Origin: Thermococcus thioreducens
Lineage (GTDB): Archaea; Methanobacteriota_B; Thermococci; Thermococcales; Thermococcaceae
Assembly: GCF_002214545.1 (NCBI RefSeq)
Contig: NZ_CP015105.1
Location: 1,860,001 to 1,924,000, forward strand
DNA: 64,000 bases
Direction of reading: 5' to 3'
Shown: in pieces, positions 9,169 through 20,774 of the stretch
How positions within the stretch are numbered: the first letter of the stretch is position 1
How the letters are laid out: every line of letters begins with the position of its first letter
The notes under the pieces: model-generated
The model's input: only the letters and a program-made list of their open reading frames with translations
Told to the model about the DNA's origin: nothing
The model's database searches: none
Made by a program: the position numbers and the translations under genes

Positions 9169-9201
9169 AGGGAGTTTCACCAAAGAAGATTGGGTGGAAC
9201 C

Positions 9202-9399
9202 ATGGAGGAGATCATAGAGGCCGTGTACGAGAACGGCGTTCTGAAGCCCCTAAAAAAACCCCATCTGCGCGATCATGAGAAAGTGAGGATAAAAATCATC
9301 GAAAGGGACTTAGATGAACTCCTTGATTCAATGGTCATCAGAAAGGTTGGGAAAATCGACTATAAGCGCCTGAAGGAGGCGTACTATGAGTCGTTCTGA
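9202..9399 (+). CDS. DUF104 (AF2212-like) antitoxin, VapB role
   Basis: 65 residues beginning MEEIIEAVYENGVLKPL, the characteristic DUF104 strand, followed by H-E-K-V-R-I-K-I and a C-terminal helical tail that should bind the toxin. GGGTGG precedes the ATG. It overlaps the PIN toxin gene by 14 bases, the standard toxin-antitoxin arrangement. By family it neutralises the PIN RNase and represses its own promoter. Confidence 0.88.
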   Translation: MEEIIEAVYENGVLKPLKKPHLRDHEKVRIKIIERDLDELLDSMVIRKVGKIDYKRLKEAYYESF

Positions 9400-9847
9400 A
9401 GTCTTTGTGGACTCATCGGTTTTCGTTGGTCTGCACCTTGGGGATCCACGGGCAAAGGCGCTCGTCAAGAAAGCCATAAATAAAGGACATACTCTGGTCA
9501 CGAACCTGGTAGTGTTTTCAGAGACAGTTTACAAGGTCATGTTTACCCTTGCCATTCAGGACGGCCTTAAAGGGGCATATGACCTCAAAAAGCATTTGAG
9601 AGACTACACTTTCGTGTATGGAAGGGTCAAGACAGCGCTTGAGGAACTCAGCGAGGCAGGGTTTTTGAAAATCGTCCCCATAAGCGAAAACACGATGAAG
9701 CTCGCATCCCAGCTTGGAGAGGACTATGAACTCCTACCAAACGATTCCCTCATCGCCGCGACGTGCAAAGAGCGTGAAATTGATCTGATTCTGACGTTTG
9801 ACTCCGACTTCAAGAGGATTCCCTTTCTAAAAACCTTCGAGGGATGA
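9386..9847 (+). CDS. PIN-domain RNase, VapC-type toxin
   Basis: 153 residues. PIN acidic residues are present: V-D-S-S (residue about 9), S-E-T (about 48), N-D-S-L-I-A-A (about 121) and T-F-D-S-D-F (about 138). This is the full Mg-binding set of VapC endoribonucleases, which cleave tRNA or rRNA in studied cases. It overlaps the DUF104 antitoxin gene upstream, and the DUF523-like gene follows within four bases, so that gene may be read from the same transcript. Confidence 0.88.
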   Translation: MSRSEVFVDSSVFVGLHLGDPRAKALVKKAINKGHTLVTNLVVFSETVYKVMFTLAIQDGLKGAYDLKKHLRDYTFVYGRVKTALEELSEAGFLKIVPISENTMKLASQLGEDYELLPNDSLIAATCKEREIDLILTFDSDFKRIPFLKTFEG

Positions 9848-9850
9848 ACC

Positions 9851-10429
9851 ATGAACCTCCTCATCATAGCCCCCTGCCTTTTAAGCCCCTTCTACGTCTA
9901 CCGCGGGCCTAAGGAGAAGGAGTATGAGACGGCCAGACTTTTGAGGGAGCTGATTGGAGAGCTCGGCGAGGACTGGCAGGTTCTCGCCTATCCCTGCCCC
10001 GAGTTCGAGGCAATGGGATGGCCAAGGGCACCTGCAAGCAGAGAAGTTTACGAGAGGCTCGGTATGCGCGAGAGGGCGAAGGTAATAGCAGACTTCATAG
10101 GGCGGGTTATAACCGAGGAAAGGCCGGAAAAGGTCGTCTTTCTCGGCGTTAAAGGCTCCCCGACCTGCGGCGTCTTCCACACGAGTTCGAGCGATCCGGA
10201 AGGCTATCCCTACAGGACCATGCAGGAGTTCTTCTACCTGAACAAGGAGGAGAGGCTGAAGCGTTCGAAGGAGCTGGTGATGGAGCAGAACTTCAGGCTC
10301 GTCCAGATGCCCGGAATACTGTTTGAAATTCTAATGGCGAGGTTCCCGGAGGCGGTTTACGTCGAGTTCGATAAGGAGGATATCGAGGGAAGCATCGAGG
10401 AGTTGAGGAATTCTTTAAACCGAGGATAA
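9851..10429 (+). CDS. DUF523-like (2-thiouracil desulfurase family) protein
   Basis: 192 residues. The N-terminus reads L-L-I-I-A-P-C-L-L-S-P with a conserved-type cysteine at about residue 9, then Y-P-C-P-E near 49 and G-S-P-T-C-G near 101. This Cys-Cys-Cys spacing with the G-V-K-G-S-P-T-C-G signature fits DUF523/2-thiouracil desulfurases, which bind an Fe-S cluster in studied members. The substrate in this organism is unknown. GGGATGAACC precedes the ATG, directly after the PIN stop. Confidence 0.6.
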   Translation: MNLLIIAPCLLSPFYVYRGPKEKEYETARLLRELIGELGEDWQVLAYPCPEFEAMGWPRAPASREVYERLGMRERAKVIADFIGRVITEERPEKVVFLGVKGSPTCGVFHTSSSDPEGYPYRTMQEFFYLNKEERLKRSKELVMEQNFRLVQMPGILFEILMARFPEAVYVEFDKEDIEGSIEELRNSLNRG

Positions 10430-11904: not shown

Positions 11905-12288
11905 TCACTTCTTCACGAGCCTGTATATACCCACGGAAACCTCGTAGGAATCGACGTTCATTGGAGCCTTGTAGTCTATCCTCACCTGGAATCTCTGGGA
12001 AGAGCCGTAAATCATTTTCCCACCTTCGGATTCCGTTAGAACGTTCCCGTTCTCGTCGAGGATGCTTATCTTTTCGACTGTGCCTTCACTTTCCGCCTTT
12101 ATCAGGTACTTTCCGGGCTCAAGGACGTTGGAGAGGTAGAAGAAGTCTCCGCTGACGGTTTCGCTTTTGACCTCTACAGGAACCTGGTCGTAGGCGTTTT
12201 CGTAGTAGTACTGCATTCCAAAGACCCCGATGATGCCAATGAGTATCAGCAGAAAGAATCCACCGACGAGTTTCTTGATAATCCCCAT
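11905..12288 (-). CDS. Membrane-anchored extracytoplasmic protein
   Basis: 127 residues: MGIIKKLVGGFFLLILIG..., an N-terminal anchor helix (about 6-26), then an all-beta domain of roughly 95 residues outside the membrane (SGDFFYLSNVLEPGKYLIKA, ISILDENGNVLTES, YEVSVGIYRLVKK). The beta pattern resembles small jelly-roll or pre-peptidase-like domains, but no family is certain. GGAGGTGAGA before ATG 12288 decides the start. Last gene of the four-gene exported-protein operon; it starts inside the end of the previous gene. Confidence 0.75.
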   Translation of the reverse strand: MGIIKKLVGGFFLLILIGIIGVFGMQYYYENAYDQVPVEVKSETVSGDFFYLSNVLEPGKYLIKAESEGTVEKISILDENGNVLTESEGGKMIYGSSQRFQVRIDYKAPMNVDSYEVSVGIYRLVKK

Positions 12289-12301
12289 TTTCTCACCTCC
12301 T

Positions 12302-13042
12302 TCACTCCTTTTCAAGTTCGACTATCTTCACAGCATCCCCAAACTCCCCAGGAGAAAGTTCTCCGGAGAGGGCCTTCAGGAGAGCGTTGCTGGAAACGGA
12401 AACGCTGACGTTCCTCTCTCCGAGATAGAGGATCTCAACCCTTTCCACCCAGGGAGCGTCCTCCAGTATAGCAAGGCTCATCCTGGCGTAGTCCCTCCAG
12501 AAGGAGTCCTCTCCAGCAAGATACTCAAGGGAAACACTCGCTGTATCGTTCGTGACGGTTACATTGTGCACGAGTACATCGAAGAGGCCTAAGTCAGTCT
12601 CTATCCTGAACTCCGGCCTTCTAATGTCCTCAAAGACCGGATTGTCGAAGTCGCCGTTTTCTATTGTTAAAGCTAAGATGGGCTCCTCCCCGAAGTAAGC
12701 CTCCACCCTGATGTTCTCCGAGCCGTTTTCATGCTCCTTCTTCGCGAGGGCATACGCCACACCTATCAGGCTTTCGTCAATGACTTCTGTTTTGAACCGA
12801 ATGACCGTCCCGCTGTCAGAGGTGAGCACGGTGACGTTCTCAGCTATCGTTGTAGATCCTTCCGTTCCCGTGGAGGACGGGGTTTCGGTAACGCCGGAAG
12901 TCTCTCCAAGGCTGTTCGTCACGTTCTTGGCGGTGTCTATGAGTTGTTCGGGGCTTAGGTCGTCTGGAATCTGGAAGTCCCAGTTGAGGTACAGGTAGGC
13001 ACCTACGATTAGGAGGAGTACCAGGAGCAGCTTCCCCTTCAT
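12302..13042 (-). CDS. Membrane-anchored protein with Ser/Thr-rich linker
   Basis: 246 residues. A single N-terminal hydrophobic helix (about 4-20) anchors it outside the cell. A Thr/Ser/Gly-rich linker (V-T-E-T-P-S-S-T-G-T-E-G-S-T-T, about 50-66) is probably glycosylated and is followed by an alpha/beta domain with several N-x-T/S sites. Its ATG overlaps the stop of the 464-residue gene (ATGA), so translation is coupled. I do not recognise the domain. Third gene of the exported-protein operon. Confidence 0.75.
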   Translation of the reverse strand: MKGKLLLVLLLIVGAYLYLNWDFQIPDDLSPEQLIDTAKNVTNSLGETSGVTETPSSTGTEGSTTIAENVTVLTSDSGTVIRFKTEVIDESLIGVAYALAKKEHENGSENIRVEAYFGEEPILALTIENGDFDNPVFEDIRRPEFRIETDLGLFDVLVHNVTVTNDTASVSLEYLAGEDSFWRDYARMSLAILEDAPWVERVEILYLGERNVSVSVSSNALLKALSGELSPGEFGDAVKIVELEKE

Positions 13043-14433
13043 ATTACCCCCTCCTCGAAGAGCTTGTTGATGTAGAACCGTACCCTCGCTTCCTGGCTCT
13101 TAAAGTCGCCCTTGGAGTTCCTGTCGAGCATGTTGACCCTGTGCATCCCCATGGTGGTGTCACTCATCCCCTCTATCGTGTTCCTGATGACCTCGCGGTA
13201 CTTCATGCCGGCCTTTTTGTAGCGAATGGCAATCTCCGCAGTTTTTTCAAACTCCCACCTGTAGTCTTGAGCAAGGGTCTTCTTTATTGCCACGCCCATC
13301 GAGTTGAGGGCAATCTCTATAGGCTTCGTCCCGATGTTTGAAGGTACGGCGTTTTTGTAGGGCGACATCGCCTTCTCGCGGTTCTCTATGTCGGACATGC
13401 CGTTGTAGAGCGAGGCGCTCCTCTCGTCCACGTGCAGGTCTTTGGCGGTCTTCTTCACCATTTCATCGTCTGAGAAGACGTTGACCTCCTTGTCGGCCTT
13501 GAAGTAGTCCTTGAAGAGCCCCAGTGGCTTGGGAAGGTAGTTTGCTACTTGATCGATGAATGTATCGAGGGCCTTGTTGCCGTAGTACTTGGCCTTCCAG
13601 CCAAGGACTGAACCACCACCAGAATAGTCCGGGTTTGAGTTGACCACCCTGACGACCTCTCCCTTCGGCGTTTTGATGACCATAAAGCCGCCCCATTTTT
13701 CGCCGAGTCCCTTGAGCTTCTCGTTGGTATCCTTCATCCTCTTAACTGCCTCCTGACTCAGACCGGTTCCCGAAGTGCTTCCTGCCCCGGAGACATCAAC
13801 GGAGGCATTCACCGGAACCCTTACCGTGCTGTTGGGTATCCTGCTCAGGTAGAGGTTCAGCAGAACCGGGGCGATGCCCTCAAGGTTGCAGGCGTTTGTC
13901 CCCTCCTGGTAAGACGCCTCCGCGGTTACCCAGTAGTGGTCGTTAACCAGAGCCACATAGGTGTGCTTAATCGACGTGAACCCGCGGCCATCGAAGTACT
14001 TCTTGGTATACACGAACTTGAGGTCAGCGTACTCGGATCGCTCGCTAAACTCGTAGTGGTAGGATATTGTCCCCTCCTTCTCACCGCTCCAGAAGCCTAT
14101 GAGATCCTCCTCTCTGTCTGTGTAGTTCTTTCCCTGCTTGATGAACCATCTGAACTGCTCCACGGCCTCGTTATCGGTGTAGTATGTGACCATGACCTCG
14201 ATGTAGTTATTGTAATCGGGGCTGTGGTTGGCGCACATGAAGTCCTGATAGAAGTTGATGTAGTTCGAGCCCTCCCATCCGCCTCCCCCACCACCGTAGG
14301 AGATTATCAATCCAAGAGAGTTAGCTTCCTCCTTGGTTATCGAGGGCAACTGCTCTGGAAACCGGGAGGCAGAAACGGGTAAGGCAAGTAATAGCATAAC
14401 TCCCAGGAAAAGGACGGGTTTCTTTAACATCAT
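13039..14433 (-). CDS. Secreted protein of unknown function
   Basis: 464 residues. A signal peptide (KKPVLFLGVMLLLALPVSAS, about 4-23) is followed by a beta-rich domain to about 210 containing two cysteines (D-F-M-C near 68 and N-A-C-N near 182) that may pair. Then come a Ser/Gly linker (SGAGSTSGTG) and a helical Lys/Asp-rich C-terminal half. There is no C-terminal anchor, so it is released or held by partners. GGAGGTTGGC precedes two consecutive ATGs (14433, 14430). The first overlaps the stop of the 43-residue gene. No known family was recognised. Confidence 0.78.
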   Translation of the reverse strand: MMLKKPVLFLGVMLLLALPVSASRFPEQLPSITKEEANSLGLIISYGGGGGGWEGSNYINFYQDFMCANHSPDYNNYIEVMVTYYTDNEAVEQFRWFIKQGKNYTDREEDLIGFWSGEKEGTISYHYEFSERSEYADLKFVYTKKYFDGRGFTSIKHTYVALVNDHYWVTAEASYQEGTNACNLEGIAPVLLNLYLSRIPNSTVRVPVNASVDVSGAGSTSGTGLSQEAVKRMKDTNEKLKGLGEKWGGFMVIKTPKGEVVRVVNSNPDYSGGGSVLGWKAKYYGNKALDTFIDQVANYLPKPLGLFKDYFKADKEVNVFSDDEMVKKTAKDLHVDERSASLYNGMSDIENREKAMSPYKNAVPSNIGTKPIEIALNSMGVAIKKTLAQDYRWEFEKTAEIAIRYKKAGMKYREVIRNTIEGMSDTTMGMHRVNMLDRNSKGDFKSQEARVRFYINKLFEEGVI

Positions 14434-14561
14434 GCCAACCTCCGAAGAATCCCCAGAAACAACCTCGCGAGCAGGAGGAAAACTATAACTGCCCCAACAA
14501 GCAGGAAAAGCCCAAGTAATGGGCCAAGAACCTTCAAGCCCGTAAGTGGTTCAGGGGACAT
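14430..14561 (-). CDS. 43-residue single-helix membrane protein, first gene of the operon
   Basis: ATG 14561 with GGGAGTG eight bases upstream opens MSPEPLTGLKVLGPLLGLFL, continuing as one long hydrophobic helix (about 9-33) and a basic tail (A-R-L-F-L-G-I-L-R-R-L-A). The stop TGA overlaps the ATG of the 464-residue secreted protein. RBS, membrane character and the ATGA junction make this a convincing small gene that is easy to miss. The tail should face the cytoplasm by the positive-inside rule. Function unknown. Confidence 0.72.
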   Translation of the reverse strand: MSPEPLTGLKVLGPLLGLFLLVGAVIVFLLLARLFLGILRRLA

Positions 14562-14684
14562 ATATTCACACTCCCGATAAAACCTATCTCGCAGAAAAGG
14601 AAAGCGGGACAGGTTTTGCTTTTAGCATGTTACACATTAATGGGCAATAAGACTTTCGGAAAAGAAAATTCGAAATTGAAGAAA

Positions 14685-15593: not shown

Positions 15594-18500
15594 ATGGCGA
15601 GGCGGAAATACGTCTCCTTTCTCACCCTCACACTGCTCTCCTTCCTCCTTACCTCCGTCGTGCTGGGGCCAGCCCTCATCGAGGCTCCCCCCGAAACCAA
15701 GAGCATCGAGGATATACTATCGCCAAAGCTTCCGCCCGGAAACGAGACCAACGAAACCGGACCGCCTGCTGAGGTTCCAGTTTCACCGCGCTTTGTCCTC
15801 CTCGTGACCGGAGCGGCACACACCCACTACCTCAGGCTCAACGTCTACACCGACTACGTGGACGGAGGGTGGCTGACCAGAAACGCCACCAAGATCCCGA
15901 GCAATGTCCTTGCCCCCCCCGAGATAAAAGTCCCCCACCACAGCGAAAGGGATAGAATAACCGTTGTCTCGTTTCTGCCCATTAGGGGCAACCTGTTCAC
16001 ATCTCTCTACACGACCCGCGTTGACGGTGCCGGGGCAGAGGCCATTCCCGAGTACAACCTTTTCATGACCCCCCTGAACGTGACCACTTACTCGTTCTCC
16101 GCGGTGAGCTACACCTTCGAGTGGCCTTATCTAGTCAACCTCACTGCTGGAAATCAGACCGAGTATCTAGAGGCTCCCAACAACACGGAGCTGAAGAACC
16201 TCGCCGAGAGCATAACCCTGGGGGCACGTTCGGATTACGGGAAGGCCATTCAGATAATCAGATACCTAGCAAACAACTACAGGCACGTGGAGAACGCCAC
16301 ACCACCGGCCGGCACCGACAGGCTGAAGTGGTTCCTGTTCGAGTCCAAGGCAGGGAGTTCCTACGACTTCGCCTCGGCCTTCGTGGTGCTGGCCAGGCTG
16401 AACGGCCTTCCTGCGAGGCTCGTCGAAGGGGTCTACATCGACGCAGTTCCGGAGACGCAGGCGGTCACCGAAGAGAACAGACACTTCTGGGCGGAGGTTT
16501 ACTTTAAGGGCGCGGGCTGGCTCACCTTCGACCCCCTTCACCCCGACCCGAACGTCTACATGCCCTTTGAGCTGGAGGTTTCACCGCCAAAGATGGTGCT
16601 CAACCCCAACTCGACGGGGGAAGTTGAGGTCAAGTTCGAGCGCGTCGCGAGCGGAACGAACTCAACGGTCACTGTGGAAGTCCCCACCCTCGGGAAGATA
16701 GCGCTCATCAACGAATCGGGGATATACACACTGACCGTAGGGCCATTTGAGGAGCCCGGCTATTATCCCCTCATAGTCAACGCCTCCACAAACGCGGGGA
16801 CGCCGATGTCCATGCTCCTCTTTACGGCAGTCACGGTTCCAGGTAGGATAACCGTCACTCCAGACCAGGCCGCGGTTGCGCTCCTCAAGACCGACCAGGT
16901 TGTCCTTGGCCTCGCGATACAGGGCGCCACCCAGGATGTGCGGCTCGAAACCACCTCCCCCTTGGTCGAAACGTGGTTCTGGTGGGGAACTCCAGGAAGC
17001 GAGACCGGGATATACGCTAGACTGGCCTCTCCGCTGAGATATCCCCTCGGATGGCACGTTGTGAACATGACCGTGACAAGCGGCGCAAAGAGGTATCCCC
17101 TCCACATCCCGGTCTTTGTCATGGAATCAACCGAGATCAGTATGGATATCCCCCACACCCTGACGGCTGGTGATTCTCTCGTCATAAACGGCACCGTGAG
17201 CGGAATCTCCACCGGAAGCGCCCCACCGCTGGGGAGCATCGTGGTGCTCCTGAGTGACGGCCGGAGAGACATACTGATAGGGTACGGCAACCTCTCAAAC
17301 GGCGGGTTCTCACTCCCCATCAGGATTCCCAAATACCTGAAGCCCATGACTGGCCAGGTGAAGGTGTACTACGTCGCACCTCTCGGGTACCCGTACCTGT
17401 CCTCAAGCACCACGCTGGTGGTCCGGATAAAGGGGCTGGCGAAGTTTTCGCTCCCCGGGCTGATTTTAGCCCGGCCTGGAAACGTCACAGTGGTGGGAAG
17501 CCTTATCGACGGTGCTGGTGAGCCGATAGCCAACGCCACCATCCCATACTACCTGGACGGAAGGTACATAGGGAACGCAACGAGCAGAACTGACGGCAGG
17601 TTCTCCCTGAGGCTGGAGATTCCGGGGATAGAACAGCACACGCTGACCCTTGAGTATCCGGGGAGCGCCAACTATTCCCCGGCAACTATGAAAGCCACAC
17701 TTGCGACCGTTGAACTTGACGTTCCAGATAAGATAACTGGCGAACTCGGAAAGCCCATCAGAATCAGCGGCAGGGTCATCGGAATTGAAAACGCCACGCT
17801 AAAGGCCTACGTATTCCCGGGCAAGACCTACACCATCAACGTCGTCAACGGAAGCTTCGATTTCACCGTTGAGCCCTTCCAGACCGTCGGTGAGAGGTCC
17901 TTGGAGTTCAGACACGGCGCCAGCATTCTGAAGCGGATAACCTTTGCGGTTGTCTCCCCCGTGAGGATAGAACTGCTGACGAAGGAGGCGAGGGGCGAAA
18001 AAACCGCCCGGCTGAAGTTCCGAGTTGTGGATTCGGTCAACGACCCCGTCAGCGGGATATACCTAAACGTCAGCGTGGACGGCTTTGCGATGCGCGTGAT
18101 GACCAACGGCTCCGGAATAGCAACCCTCGACGTCCCAGTGCCGGAGGAGGAAACCAACGCAACTGTGACGGTTGCCTTCGACGGCTCCCCCTACTACCTG
18201 CCCGCCAGCGGAAGGTTCCACGTCGTAATCGGTAAAAAGCGGAAGATACCATGGCTCTACATCGGCGTGATCGTGATAATCGGCGCCCTGGTGGCCAGAT
18301 ACAGGCTCGTGAAGAGGAAACCAGAGGATAGGAGGCAGGAGAGGATTCTGAAGATAATATTCAACAACGGCATACCCCTGTTCCAGGAGGGCGAGACCAT
18401 GGAGATAAGCGTGGAGTGCGACGGCGAGCCCGAGCTCTACGTCGACGGGAAACCCTTCGGGAGGGGGCGGGACTTCAAATTAACTCTGCCGCTGGGAGAC

Positions 18501-18821
18501 CACACGATAGAGGCCAGGTGCAACGGTCTTGTTGAGACCGCCAGAGCCAGGATACTGCCCAGCTACAACGACGCCGTCGTGGAGTACTACGAGAGGTGCT
18601 TCCTCCCCTGGGCGAAGGGTGTGGGGGTGGACGTGGACGAACTGACGCCCAGGGAAATAGCGGAGACCCTCACAGACATGATGTACCCGTGGGAGCCCAT
18701 AGACACCCTTACGGAGATATTCGAGAAGGCCAAGTACAGCGGAAGGAGGGTCTCAAGGGAGGAGTTCATACGGTTCTACCGCTCGGTGCTCGAGGTGATA
18801 GGAGGTGGCTGCGTTGTTTAA
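15594..18821 (+). CDS. Transglutaminase-like membrane protein with Ig-like repeats and DUF4129-like tail
   Basis: 1075 residues. N-terminal signal/anchor (about 6-29), a transglutaminase-like domain (about 200-320), several Ig-like beta domains with many N-x-T/S sites (about 330-870), one membrane helix (about 884-905) and a cytoplasmic tail ending in a DUF4129-like segment (L-T-P-R-E-I-A-E...E-K-A-K-Y-S-G). The His and Asp of the catalytic triad are present (H297 in H-F-W-A-E-V, D313 in T-F-D-P). The usual Cys position (G-x-C-x-D-F-A) reads G-S-S-Y-D-F-A, so Ser256 replaces Cys. The Ser may be inactive, binding only, or an alternative nucleophile. Leads the MoxR/DUF58 cluster and overlaps the next gene. 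Confidence 0.88.
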   Translation: MARRKYVSFLTLTLLSFLLTSVVLGPALIEAPPETKSIEDILSPKLPPGNETNETGPPAEVPVSPRFVLLVTGAAHTHYLRLNVYTDYVDGGWLTRNATKIPSNVLAPPEIKVPHHSERDRITVVSFLPIRGNLFTSLYTTRVDGAGAEAIPEYNLFMTPLNVTTYSFSAVSYTFEWPYLVNLTAGNQTEYLEAPNNTELKNLAESITLGARSDYGKAIQIIRYLANNYRHVENATPPAGTDRLKWFLFESKAGSSYDFASAFVVLARLNGLPARLVEGVYIDAVPETQAVTEENRHFWAEVYFKGAGWLTFDPLHPDPNVYMPFELEVSPPKMVLNPNSTGEVEVKFERVASGTNSTVTVEVPTLGKIALINESGIYTLTVGPFEEPGYYPLIVNASTNAGTPMSMLLFTAVTVPGRITVTPDQAAVALLKTDQVVLGLAIQGATQDVRLETTSPLVETWFWWGTPGSETGIYARLASPLRYPLGWHVVNMTVTSGAKRYPLHIPVFVMESTEISMDIPHTLTAGDSLVINGTVSGISTGSAPPLGSIVVLLSDGRRDILIGYGNLSNGGFSLPIRIPKYLKPMTGQVKVYYVAPLGYPYLSSSTTLVVRIKGLAKFSLPGLILARPGNVTVVGSLIDGAGEPIANATIPYYLDGRYIGNATSRTDGRFSLRLEIPGIEQHTLTLEYPGSANYSPATMKATLATVELDVPDKITGELGKPIRISGRVIGIENATLKAYVFPGKTYTINVVNGSFDFTVEPFQTVGERSLEFRHGASILKRITFAVVSPVRIELLTKEARGEKTARLKFRVVDSVNDPVSGIYLNVSVDGFAMRVMTNGSGIATLDVPVPEEETNATVTVAFDGSPYYLPASGRFHVVIGKKRKIPWLYIGVIVIIGALVARYRLVKRKPEDRRQERILKIIFNNGIPLFQEGETMEISVECDGEPELYVDGKPFGRGRDFKLTLPLGDHTIEARCNGLVETARARILPSYNDAVVEYYERCFLPWAKGVGVDVDELTPREIAETLTDMMYPWEPIDTLTEIFEKAKYSGRRVSREEFIRFYRSVLEVIGGGCVV

Positions 18822-19803
18822 GCTCAACCCGGGAAGAATCGCGATATACATCGGTGCCCTGACGCTCATATATGCCCTCTCCACCCAGATGGAGGAGCTG
18901 AAAACCCTCCTAATGCCTGCAGTGGTGCTCGCCCTGTTTTTAACCGCCGGAGACGTTGCCGGGGCGATAAAGGGGGAAAACGAGGCCTTCGCCCTCAGGC
19001 TCCTCGGAGTAACCCTCGCGGCGCTCTTCCTGCCAGCCGAATGGAACATCCCCGCGGCCATGATAGTGCTCGGAGCGGGGACTGCCATAATAGCACCGAA
19101 ACTGGAGGGCCATCCCAGGTTCGTCAGGGGCGCGGGGCTCTTGATTGGCCTCTACGGCGTCTCAAGGCTTCCCCCTCTCGGAGCGATGGGGAGCGTCTTC
19201 AGCTACGCGGGCCTTTTCCTGTTCCTCGGATACTCGATAGCAGAGCTCGGCGAGAGGTACCCTTGGACCGAGCCCGTTGAAAGAAACCTGCTTGGACTGG
19301 GCGCCCTCGGTGCGATCCTCGGGCTCTACACAGCGGTAAGGGGAAGCCTGAGCGAGAGCCACCCGGAGCTGGTATTCTACGGGGAGTGGCTGGTTCTTCT
19401 CCTGGGAGTCATCGTGGCCGGAAGCATGGTCTACTCGTACGTCAGCGAAAAAGACCCGGAGGCGTATCTCCTTTCCCAGTGGAGAAAGCACGAGGCGAGA
19501 ACCGTGAAAAAGCTCGGCCCGGAACTCGCGGAGGCGAGTAAAGCAGTTGAGGACTTCGTGGTGCGTGGGAAGAAGGCGGCACTGGTGGCGTTCATAGCCT
19601 ACTACGGGGCAAGGCTCTTCGATGATAGGAAAAAGTTCGAGGCGCTCATAGGGAAGATAGCCGACTACAGGGGCAGGCAGACCTCCCGGCTGACGCCGCT
19701 CTGGATAAGGCACGCCTACGAGAAGAGAGAACTTGAGAGGAGGATTAGAATCGTTGAGGAGGTTTTTGAGGAACTGAAAACGCTCATGAGGTGGGAGTCA
19801 TGA
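18814..19803 (+). CDS. Multi-helix membrane protein of the MoxR/DUF58 cluster
   Basis: 329 residues from TTG 18814, chosen because GGAGGT (18801-18806) is seven bases before it; a GTG at 18805 would lie inside the RBS. About nine hydrophobic helices fill residues 8-215 (IAIYIGALTLIYAL, LLMPAVVLALFLTAGDVAG, and so on). A cytoplasmic helical domain of about 110 charged residues follows. The gene begins inside the transglutaminase end and stops on the MoxR ATG. The family was not recognised; position suggests a membrane partner of MoxR and DUF58. Confidence 0.8.
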   Translation: MFKLNPGRIAIYIGALTLIYALSTQMEELKTLLMPAVVLALFLTAGDVAGAIKGENEAFALRLLGVTLAALFLPAEWNIPAAMIVLGAGTAIIAPKLEGHPRFVRGAGLLIGLYGVSRLPPLGAMGSVFSYAGLFLFLGYSIAELGERYPWTEPVERNLLGLGALGAILGLYTAVRGSLSESHPELVFYGEWLVLLLGVIVAGSMVYSYVSEKDPEAYLLSQWRKHEARTVKKLGPELAEASKAVEDFVVRGKKAALVAFIAYYGARLFDDRKKFEALIGKIADYRGRQTSRLTPLWIRHAYEKRELERRIRIVEEVFEELKTLMRWES

Positions 19804-20774
19804 TGGATATTAAAGAGGCGTTTGAAACCCTTGAGGAAATCGTTGAGGCGGTTTCTCGGGTGTATATTGGTAATGAGGTTGTTGTTAGGAAGACTTTGGC
19901 TGCGGCGTTGGTGAATGGGAATGTCCTCTTCGAGGATTATCCTGGCTTGGGCAAGACGCTCTTAGCCAAAGCCTTCGGAAAAGTCCTCGGCTTGAAGTAC
20001 ACGCGCGTCCAATTCACTCCAGACTTGCTTCCAGCCGACATTCTGGGCACCAAAGTCTGGCGCCAAAACCTCGGAACCTTCGAGTTAATCAAAGGCCCAA
20101 TCTTCACGCACGTTCTATTAGCGGATGAAATCAACCGGGCTCCCCCAAAGACTCAGTCGGCTCTGCTCGAAGCCATGGAGGAGAAGCAGGTAACCATCGA
20201 GGGCGAAACCTTCACCCTGGAGAGGCCGTTCTTCGTCATTGCCACCCAAAACCCCATCGAGTTCGAGGGGACTTACCCCCTCCCAGAGGCTCAGCTCGAC
20301 CGCTTTCTCTTAAGGCTCCGCGTGGGTTATCCGAAATCGCTTGAGGATGAGGTGGCTATCCTTGAGGCGCGCTTGAGCTGGCGGAAGGATGATCCGACGG
20401 TTGACATGAGGGCCTTGATTGATCGAGAGACTTTTGTCGAGATGCAGGATTTGGTCGAGCGGGGGATTTTCATCAGCCGGGACTTGTTGAAGTACATTGC
20501 TGAGTTGATTAGGAATGCCCGCGCTGATGAGAGGGTTGAGGCTGGCCCGAGTCCTCGTGGGGGGATTGCCTTGATGAAGGTGGCTAAGGCTAATGCTTTG
20601 CTTGAGGGGCGGGATTTTGTCCTGCCGGATGATGTTAAGGCTTACGCGGTGGATGCTTTGGCTCACAGGGTTGTGGTCAAGCCTGAGTACGCTTTTGAAG
20701 GCATAAACGGGGAGGAGATTGTTAGGGAAGCCCTAGAAAAAACACCCGTACCGAAAGAGGCGGGGGAGAGATGA
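19800..20774 (+). CDS. MoxR-family AAA+ ATPase
   Basis: 324 residues. Walker A G-L-G-K-T is near residue 47, Walker B L-L-A-D-E-I-N-R-A-P near 105, sensor-1 A-T-Q-N-P near 147, and a lid helix with G-P-S-P-R-G near 252. MoxR proteins act as chaperones that load or activate partner VWA/DUF58 proteins. Such a partner gene follows with a four-base overlap. Codon use is mosaic: about 19805-19925 and 20340-20710 are rich in TTG, GTT and GAT, while 19926-20330 is C-ending like the neighbours. GGTGGGAGTC precedes ATG 19800; ATG 19803 is an alternative. Confidence 0.93.
   Translation: MMDIKEAFETLEEIVEAVSRVYIGNEVVVRKTLAAALVNGNVLFEDYPGLGKTLLAKAFGKVLGLKYTRVQFTPDLLPADILGTKVWRQNLGTFELIKGPIFTHVLLADEINRAPPKTQSALLEAMEEKQVTIEGETFTLERPFFVIATQNPIEFEGTYPLPEAQLDRFLLRLRVGYPKSLEDEVAILEARLSWRKDDPTVDMRALIDRETFVEMQDLVERGIFISRDLLKYIAELIRNARADERVEAGPSPRGGIALMKVAKANALLEGRDFVLPDDVKAYAVDALAHRVVVKPEYAFEGINGEEIVREALEKTPVPKEAGER

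What the first reader, a model, noticed from the sequence alone, without database searches (positions are those of the whole stretch)
11905..14561. Uncharacterised four-gene operon for exported proteins
A 43-residue membrane peptide, a 464-residue secreted protein, a 246-residue membrane-anchored protein with a Ser/Thr-rich linker and a 127-residue anchored beta protein are chained by overlaps. None has a recognisable domain. All are outside the cell or in the membrane, which suggests one surface complex.
Basis: partly seen in the sequence, partly recalled or inferred. Interest (0 to 1): 0.65.

Follow-up and report, generated by a model that had tools for sequence, protein, structure and literature searches.

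The report
Shuffling archaeal surface-protein module
The four small genes are one version of an apparently undescribed, frequently exchanged gene module of heat-loving Thermococcus-type archaea: a secreted protein with swappable parts and its own matched membrane partner, headed by a shared mRNA leader hairpin; it probably builds a variable cell-surface complex, or possibly a weapon with its antidote.

Summary
A (464 aa, secreted) and B (246 aa, membrane-anchored), preceded by a 43-aa membrane peptide and followed by a 127-aa anchored protein, match no Pfam, NCBIfam, PADLOC or solved-structure family. It is more than an operon: it is one allele of a modular locus, mostly between BtpA and phosphosugar-mutase genes, carried by about 46 of 94 Thermococcaceae genomes; its type was found in none of 21 other genomes of the phylum. 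A has an exchangeable head and one of two unrelated C-terminal tips, C1 or C2; B has one of two unrelated partner domains. Pairing is strict: C1 with B1 in 29/29, C2 with B2 in 16/16, while heads move between tips (74% identical heads on different tips). A and B evolve together but independently of their chromosomal neighbours, so they travel horizontally. Nearly every copy starts with the same promoter and a covarying hairpin, absent from Rfam. P43 and P127 come and go. Most likely mechanism (0.45): A's tip docks on cognate B outside the membrane and displays a fast-changing head. Main rival (0.35): secreted toxin plus membrane-anchored immunity protein. By the features tested it is neither VARTIG nor a standard polymorphic-toxin system. 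Molecular function is untested.

The parts
14645..14659 (-). predicted archaeal BRE/TATA-like promoter (CCGAAAGTCTTATTG)
   Evidence: aligned at the same place in the leaders of about 20 loci; consensus reading, no transcript data
14579..14617 (-). leader hairpin (probable 5'-UTR): conserved pyrimidine-rich loop and C/G inner stem, covarying outer stem
   Evidence: fold z=-2.3; 21 both-side changes vs 8.5+-2.4 shuffled, 90.6% cells paired vs at most 50% when slid; covariance model hits 60 of 94 genomes, strong ones at module loci except one; no Rfam match
14430..14561 (-). P43, 43-aa single-span membrane peptide, optional first gene
13039..14433 (-). A protein (464 aa), secreted: signal peptide ~1-23, head N1 ~34-200, disordered linker ~205-226, tip C1 ~221-464
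13759..14361 (-). exchangeable N1 head of A (residues 25-225); predicted alpha/beta domain weakly resembling Mog1/PsbP-like secreted proteins
   Evidence: AlphaFold pLDDT about 90, Foldseek; most variable part, mean identity 0.41
13042..13773 (-). C1 tip of A (residues 221-464), mostly helical
   Evidence: always followed by B1, 29/29; mean identity 0.66
12302..13042 (-). B protein (246 aa): N-terminal membrane anchor, Ser/Thr-rich linker 21-65, outer B1 domain 67-246
11905..12288 (-). P127, membrane-anchored beta-rich protein; travels with the module, also found alone

Best explanation
The operon is one allele of a horizontally exchanged surface-display module. Shown by sequence: A carries an export signal and B a membrane anchor; A's C-terminal tip and B's outer domain form an obligate matched pair that exists in two unrelated versions (C1/B1, C2/B2); A's head is exchanged and diverges fastest; the cassette moves horizontally; copies share a promoter and leader hairpin. 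Inferred: B stands on the outside of the membrane on its Ser/Thr-rich stalk, A's tip docks onto it non-covalently, and the head is held at or beyond the S-layer, where it meets partners that change quickly (viruses, other cells, other strains). Two incompatible docking pairs would explain why tip and partner are always replaced together while heads move freely. P43, P127 and the optional genes are accessory membrane or surface subunits. The hairpin, near the predicted 5' end of the mRNA, would set expression of whatever module is present through a factor that recognises its loop.
For: Strict pairing 29/29 and 16/16; no intact orphan partner in 94 genomes. Heads shared across tips: L113 (C1) vs L104 (C2) 74% over 221 aa; N1 head on a C2 tip in L118. 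Head-only replacement: L115/L116 51-65% DNA identity in the head, then 90-99% in the rest of A; L099/L100 head dN 0.335 vs tip 0.061. Conservation order head 0.41 < B1 0.62 ~ C1 0.66 < P127 0.80 < flanks 0.86-0.88, the reverse of a toxin whose tip varies. Tip and B distances correlate (r 0.83) but tip and BtpA do not (r -0.02, p 0.51), although BtpA and the mutase correlate (0.83). The N1 head model weakly resembles PsbP/LpqN/MTC28/Apa/DcrB folds, several of them envelope proteins or adhesins. B carries Ca-binding-type repeats (B2) or an extra conserved 190-aa domain, more like a scaffold than a small immunity protein.
Against: No direct evidence that A binds B or stays on the cell. Co-replacement of tip plus next gene is also the textbook logic of toxin/immunity cassettes (PMC3482391). 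Foldseek matches are weak (no E<0.001 for A; low TM-scores) and the C1 fold matched nothing. The reading of the head as ligand-facing rests on divergence alone.
Confidence: 0.45

Rival explanations
1. Toxin-immunity module: A is a secreted bacteriocin-like protein whose variable head binds receptors on competitors and whose tip (C1 or C2) harms the target envelope; B is the membrane-anchored, outward-facing immunity protein that neutralises only the cognate tip.
For: Tip and next gene always replaced together, as in toxin-immunity cassettes (PMC3482391); B always follows A; both pairs in tandem in L101 and L104; horizontal spread unlinked to flanks; a variable head could be a receptor-binding domain.
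Against: Only two tip types in about 46 genomes, both well conserved; heads, not tips, are the variable part; no intact orphan immunity gene in genomes without A; no toxin or nuclease family or fold for the tips; B is large and multi-domain.
Confidence: 0.35
2. Ordinary envelope function (substrate capture, S-layer or vesicle component) whose variation reflects drift and niche differences rather than conflict or recognition.
For: Optional lipoprotein-like, CGP-CTERM and Ca-binding-type proteins look like surface scaffolds; purifying selection throughout; many genomes lack it, so it is dispensable.
Against: Head swapping, tandem alternative pairs and decay remnants are unusual for housekeeping surface proteins; no transporter or enzyme gene is consistently linked within the module.
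Confidence: 0.15
3. A VARTIG locus (the Ig-domain hypervariable module of Thermococcales, PMC8416519).
For: Same lineage; operon led by a large secreted variable protein followed by membrane proteins; recombination in place.
Against: No CARDB/Ig Pfam match in A, no D[ND]NxxxG[GD] C-terminal motif, the variable part is N-terminal, downstream genes are not homologous to A's C-terminus.
Confidence: 0.03

Closest known systems
VARTIG module of Thermococcales (arCOG07710; PMC8416519)
   Same: Thermococcales-restricted, horizontally shuffled operon led by a secreted multidomain protein, followed by membrane proteins; function unknown; PTS-like layout
   Different: VARTIG varies in its C-terminal Ig domain, carries a DNNxxxGG C-terminal motif, recombines next to an RNase III homologue and has downstream relatives of the large protein's C-terminus; here the head varies most, tips are two unrelated types with cognate partners, the main site is BtpA/mutase, and there is a dedicated leader hairpin
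Polymorphic toxin systems (PMC3482391)
   Same: modular secreted protein; 3' tip and following gene exchanged as one cassette; tandem cassettes
   Different: no toxin domain recognised, only two tips, tip more conserved than head, no orphan tip or immunity cassettes seen
Mog1/PsbP-like secreted proteins (PsbP, LpqN, MTC28, Apa, DcrB)
   Same: weak structural resemblance of the N1 head
   Different: no sequence similarity; Foldseek E above 0.001; only the head, not the architecture
CamS/cAM373 sex-pheromone precursor lipoproteins of Firmicutes
   Same: best Foldseek match of B: 3n2q E 8e-5, probability 1.0, plus 2qx2, 3ib5, 4hn3
   Different: low TM-score (0.24), no sequence similarity, membrane-span anchor here instead of a lipid anchor

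Membership tests
Polymorphic toxin system | C-terminal tip and adjacent downstream gene exchanged together as a matched pair | tested here: met
   C1-B1 29/29, C2-B2 16/16; same heads on both tips
Polymorphic toxin system | C-terminal tip is a recognisable toxin domain | tested here: not met
   no match in Pfam, NCBIfam, PADLOC, PDB; C1 fold without match
Polymorphic toxin system | constant N-terminal trafficking body, diverse C-terminal tips | tested here: not met
   heads are more variable (0.41) than tips (0.66); two tip types only
Polymorphic toxin system | standalone toxin cassettes or orphan immunity genes | tested here: not met
   only decayed fragments of B without A (G026, G091, G029, G041) in 94 genomes
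Polymorphic toxin system | downstream protein neutralises the tip | not testable with these tools
   needs an expression experiment
VARTIG | large protein with several CARDB/Ig domains | tested here: not met
   no Pfam Ig/CARDB match in A of either type, though N3/N4 heads contain Ig-like-looking stretches by eye
VARTIG | D[ND]NxxxG[GD] motif near the C-terminus | tested here: not met
   C-termini of A and B in alignments A1 and A2 and the sequences
VARTIG | downstream smaller proteins homologous to the large protein's C-terminus | tested here: not met
   blast clustering and HMM maps show no such genes
VARTIG | direct profile match to arCOG07710 | not tested
   no VARTIG sequence was fetched
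Cohesin-dockerin type docking pair (considered for C2/B2) | dockerin or cohesin domain match | tested here: not met
   B2 has Asp-rich repeats but only sub-threshold EF-hand/dockerin scores (E 0.009-0.06)

The most novel reading that the evidence does not exclude
A categorically new archaeal self/non-self or conflict system: a secreted effector with freely exchanged recognition heads, two alternative effector/partner pairs, and a dedicated, trans-regulated RNA leader that marks the locus whatever genes it contains.
Probability: 0.3. Interest if true: 0.8.

Novelty: new variant of a known kind. Interest (0 to 1): 0.6.

Why it matters
Little is known of how archaea recognise or fight one another. 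This module is common in a genetically tractable group, differs from VARTIG and polymorphic toxins in defined ways, and gives clean natural variants (same head with different tip and partner; same tip with different head) that make docking versus toxin directly testable. The covarying leader hairpin is a candidate new archaeal RNA element tied almost entirely to one locus per genome.

Tried and rejected
Family scans with single proteins and alignments (Pfam, NCBIfam, PHROGs, PADLOC, PDB) gave nothing usable; the Psb28, Gp38 and Wzt_C hits and the OXA beta-lactamase hits are sub-threshold noise. Tip C1 vs tip C2 by hhalign: no similarity, only the first ~70 residues of the heads align; B1 vs B2 share only the optional BC domain. 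Viral contigs, plasmids and BFVD structures: no relative, so no sign of a virus or plasmid origin. tRNA-linked integration: the only tRNA in the window is 23 kb away. Minus-strand ORFs called in some loci (cluster CL6) were dismissed as antisense artefacts of my gene calling. Literature on Thermococcales found only VARTIG; Makarova 2019 mBio on archaeal toxins is not held, so a mention there cannot be excluded.

Full report
WHAT IS THERE. The window is G000:C1:1860001-1924000 of a complete 2.07-Mb Thermococcaceae genome. Two links overlap by 4 nt; B to P127 is a 13-nt gap from the conserved ATG. None has a family assignment.

THE LOCUS IN RELATIVES. A-like proteins of the window's type occur in 33 of 94 Thermococcaceae genomes (30 with the C1 tip, 3 with fragments or a head only), B-like in 30, P127-like in 57. 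A profile search of the phylum found none outside the family, but only 21 other genomes were available. I fetched 70 loci and mapped them with HMMs. In 57 loci both flanks are resolved: 32 have an A-B pair between BtpA and the mutase, 11 have P127 alone or with remnants, 14 have neither. Modules also sit at other chromosomal sites (L095, L115-L117, L129, L160). Other genes that join the module are a 235-aa lipoprotein-like protein (G238), a 150-aa protein without a signal peptide (G155) and a 570-aa protein with a near-threshold CGP-CTERM surface signal (G570).

MODULARITY. A is built of a head and a tip. Tip C1 (window) and tip C2 (~330 aa, starting with an acidic Cys-containing stretch) are not detectably related. 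B is built of a membrane anchor, a low-complexity linker, a domain B1 or B2 (B2 with Asp-rich, Ca-binding-type repeats), and an optional 190-aa BC domain shared by both. Tip and B domain never mix: C1 is followed by B1 in 29 of 29 cases and C2 by B2 in 16 of 16 (one more C2 ends at a contig end). Whole-genome searches with both B profiles and both A profiles found no intact partner on its own; C2 occurs in 18 genomes, two of which (G023, G042) have both pairs in tandem, so about 46 of 94 genomes carry a pair. Heads, in contrast, are found on both tips: L113 (C1) and L104 (C2) heads are 74% identical over 221 residues, and L118 has an N1 head like the window's on a C2 tip. I treat these counts as descriptive because the genomes are related.

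EXCHANGE AND SELECTION. Pairwise distances of tip C1 and B1 correlate (Mantel r 0.83, 0 of 2000 permutations) but tip C1 and BtpA do not (r -0.02, p 0.51), while BtpA and the mutase do (0.83). The window and G037 show a recent transfer: BtpA dS 0.89, but 0.01-0.11 from P127 to A and 0.12 in the mutase, with 80-88% DNA identity in BtpA and 89-100% from the leader through most of the mutase gene. Head-only replacement is visible in L115/L116 and L099/L100. In C2-type loci BC follows P127 in its distances (r 0.90 in the 45-pair set; 0.60 over all loci), which suggests a second breakpoint inside B; this is weaker evidence. Mean identity runs head 0.41, B1 0.62, C1 0.66, P127 0.80, flanks 0.86-0.88. 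Tips and B are under purifying selection.

STRUCTURE. AlphaFold of A (20-sequence alignment) gives a confident alpha/beta head (about 34-200), a disordered linker and a helical tip of mixed confidence. Foldseek matches of the head centre on PsbP, MTC28, LpqN, Apa and DcrB, i.e. the Mog1/PsbP-like fold, at E 0.003-0.05: a lead, not an assignment. B's domain is confident (pLDDT about 90) and is closest to CamS/cAM373 lipoproteins (E 8e-5, low TM-score).

A LEADER HAIRPIN. Upstream of the first gene, in the window at 14659-14579 (minus strand), lies a BRE/TATA-like element followed by a 10-bp stem, a C.A mismatch, a 3-bp C/G stem and a pyrimidine loop, then the ribosome-binding site. The same leader precedes the first gene of the module in nearly every locus, at the main site and at other sites, and before each of two tandem modules in L101 and L121, whether the first gene is P43, A, P127 or G238. 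In 36 distinct copies 90.6% of pair cells are standard against 30-50% when the partner is slid, and 21 cells change on both sides against 8.5 +- 2.4 in shuffles (0/500). A covariance model finds it in 60 of 94 genomes; the strong hits lie at module loci except one in G033, ahead of a mucin-like secreted lipoprotein, where the stem is different and the loop the same. The weakest hits (E above 0.001) are probably chance. Rfam has nothing. That it is transcribed and acts as RNA is inferred from its position and covariation.

MECHANISM. Shown: export and anchoring signals, obligate matched pairing, head exchange, horizontal movement, common leader. Inferred: physical A-B binding, outward display, ligand-facing head, regulation by the hairpin. 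I prefer docking/display (0.45) to toxin/immunity (0.35) because the tip is the conserved part, only two tips exist, no orphan immunity genes were found, and B is a large multi-domain protein; but co-replacement of tip and next gene is precisely what toxin cassettes do (PMC3482391), so this is close. The remaining weight covers ordinary envelope roles and unknowns.

KNOWN SYSTEMS. VARTIG (PMC8416519) is the only described hypervariable Thermococcales module I found. The tested VARTIG features are not met, nor are three of the four tested features of polymorphic toxin systems. I therefore call it a new variant of the general kind 'shuffled exported-protein module', not a member of either family.

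Noticed in passing
L168 4738-4792 (+), G033:C1:1154738: The same loop in a different stem precedes an 851-aa secreted, mucin-like Thr/Ser-rich lipoprotein, so the leader hairpin may serve other surface proteins too.
   Followed up: partly
window 15594-20774 (+): Divergent neighbour operon: transglutaminase-like Ig-domain membrane protein (1075 aa) followed by genes including a MoxR-type AAA ATPase; its first gene varies strongly between genomes (31-90% identity) beside BtpA.
   Followed up: no
window 9190-9847 (+): Small ORF plus PIN-type ORF that look like a VapBC-style toxin-antitoxin pair (by eye; not scanned).
   Followed up: no
window 9851-10429 (+): Protein related to TudS-type desulfidases, below the curated NCBIfam cut-off (49.6 of 130 bits).
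   Followed up: no
L123 2067-6685, L129 8948-11512: Fragments of BtpA and of the 570-aa CGP-CTERM protein beside module copies suggest duplication and decay at the locus.
   Followed up: no
L131 vs L149, B2 domain: Two loci nearly identical across the module (dS 0.00-0.10) differ in B2 (dS 0.25), a small patch exchange inside the partner domain.
   Followed up: no
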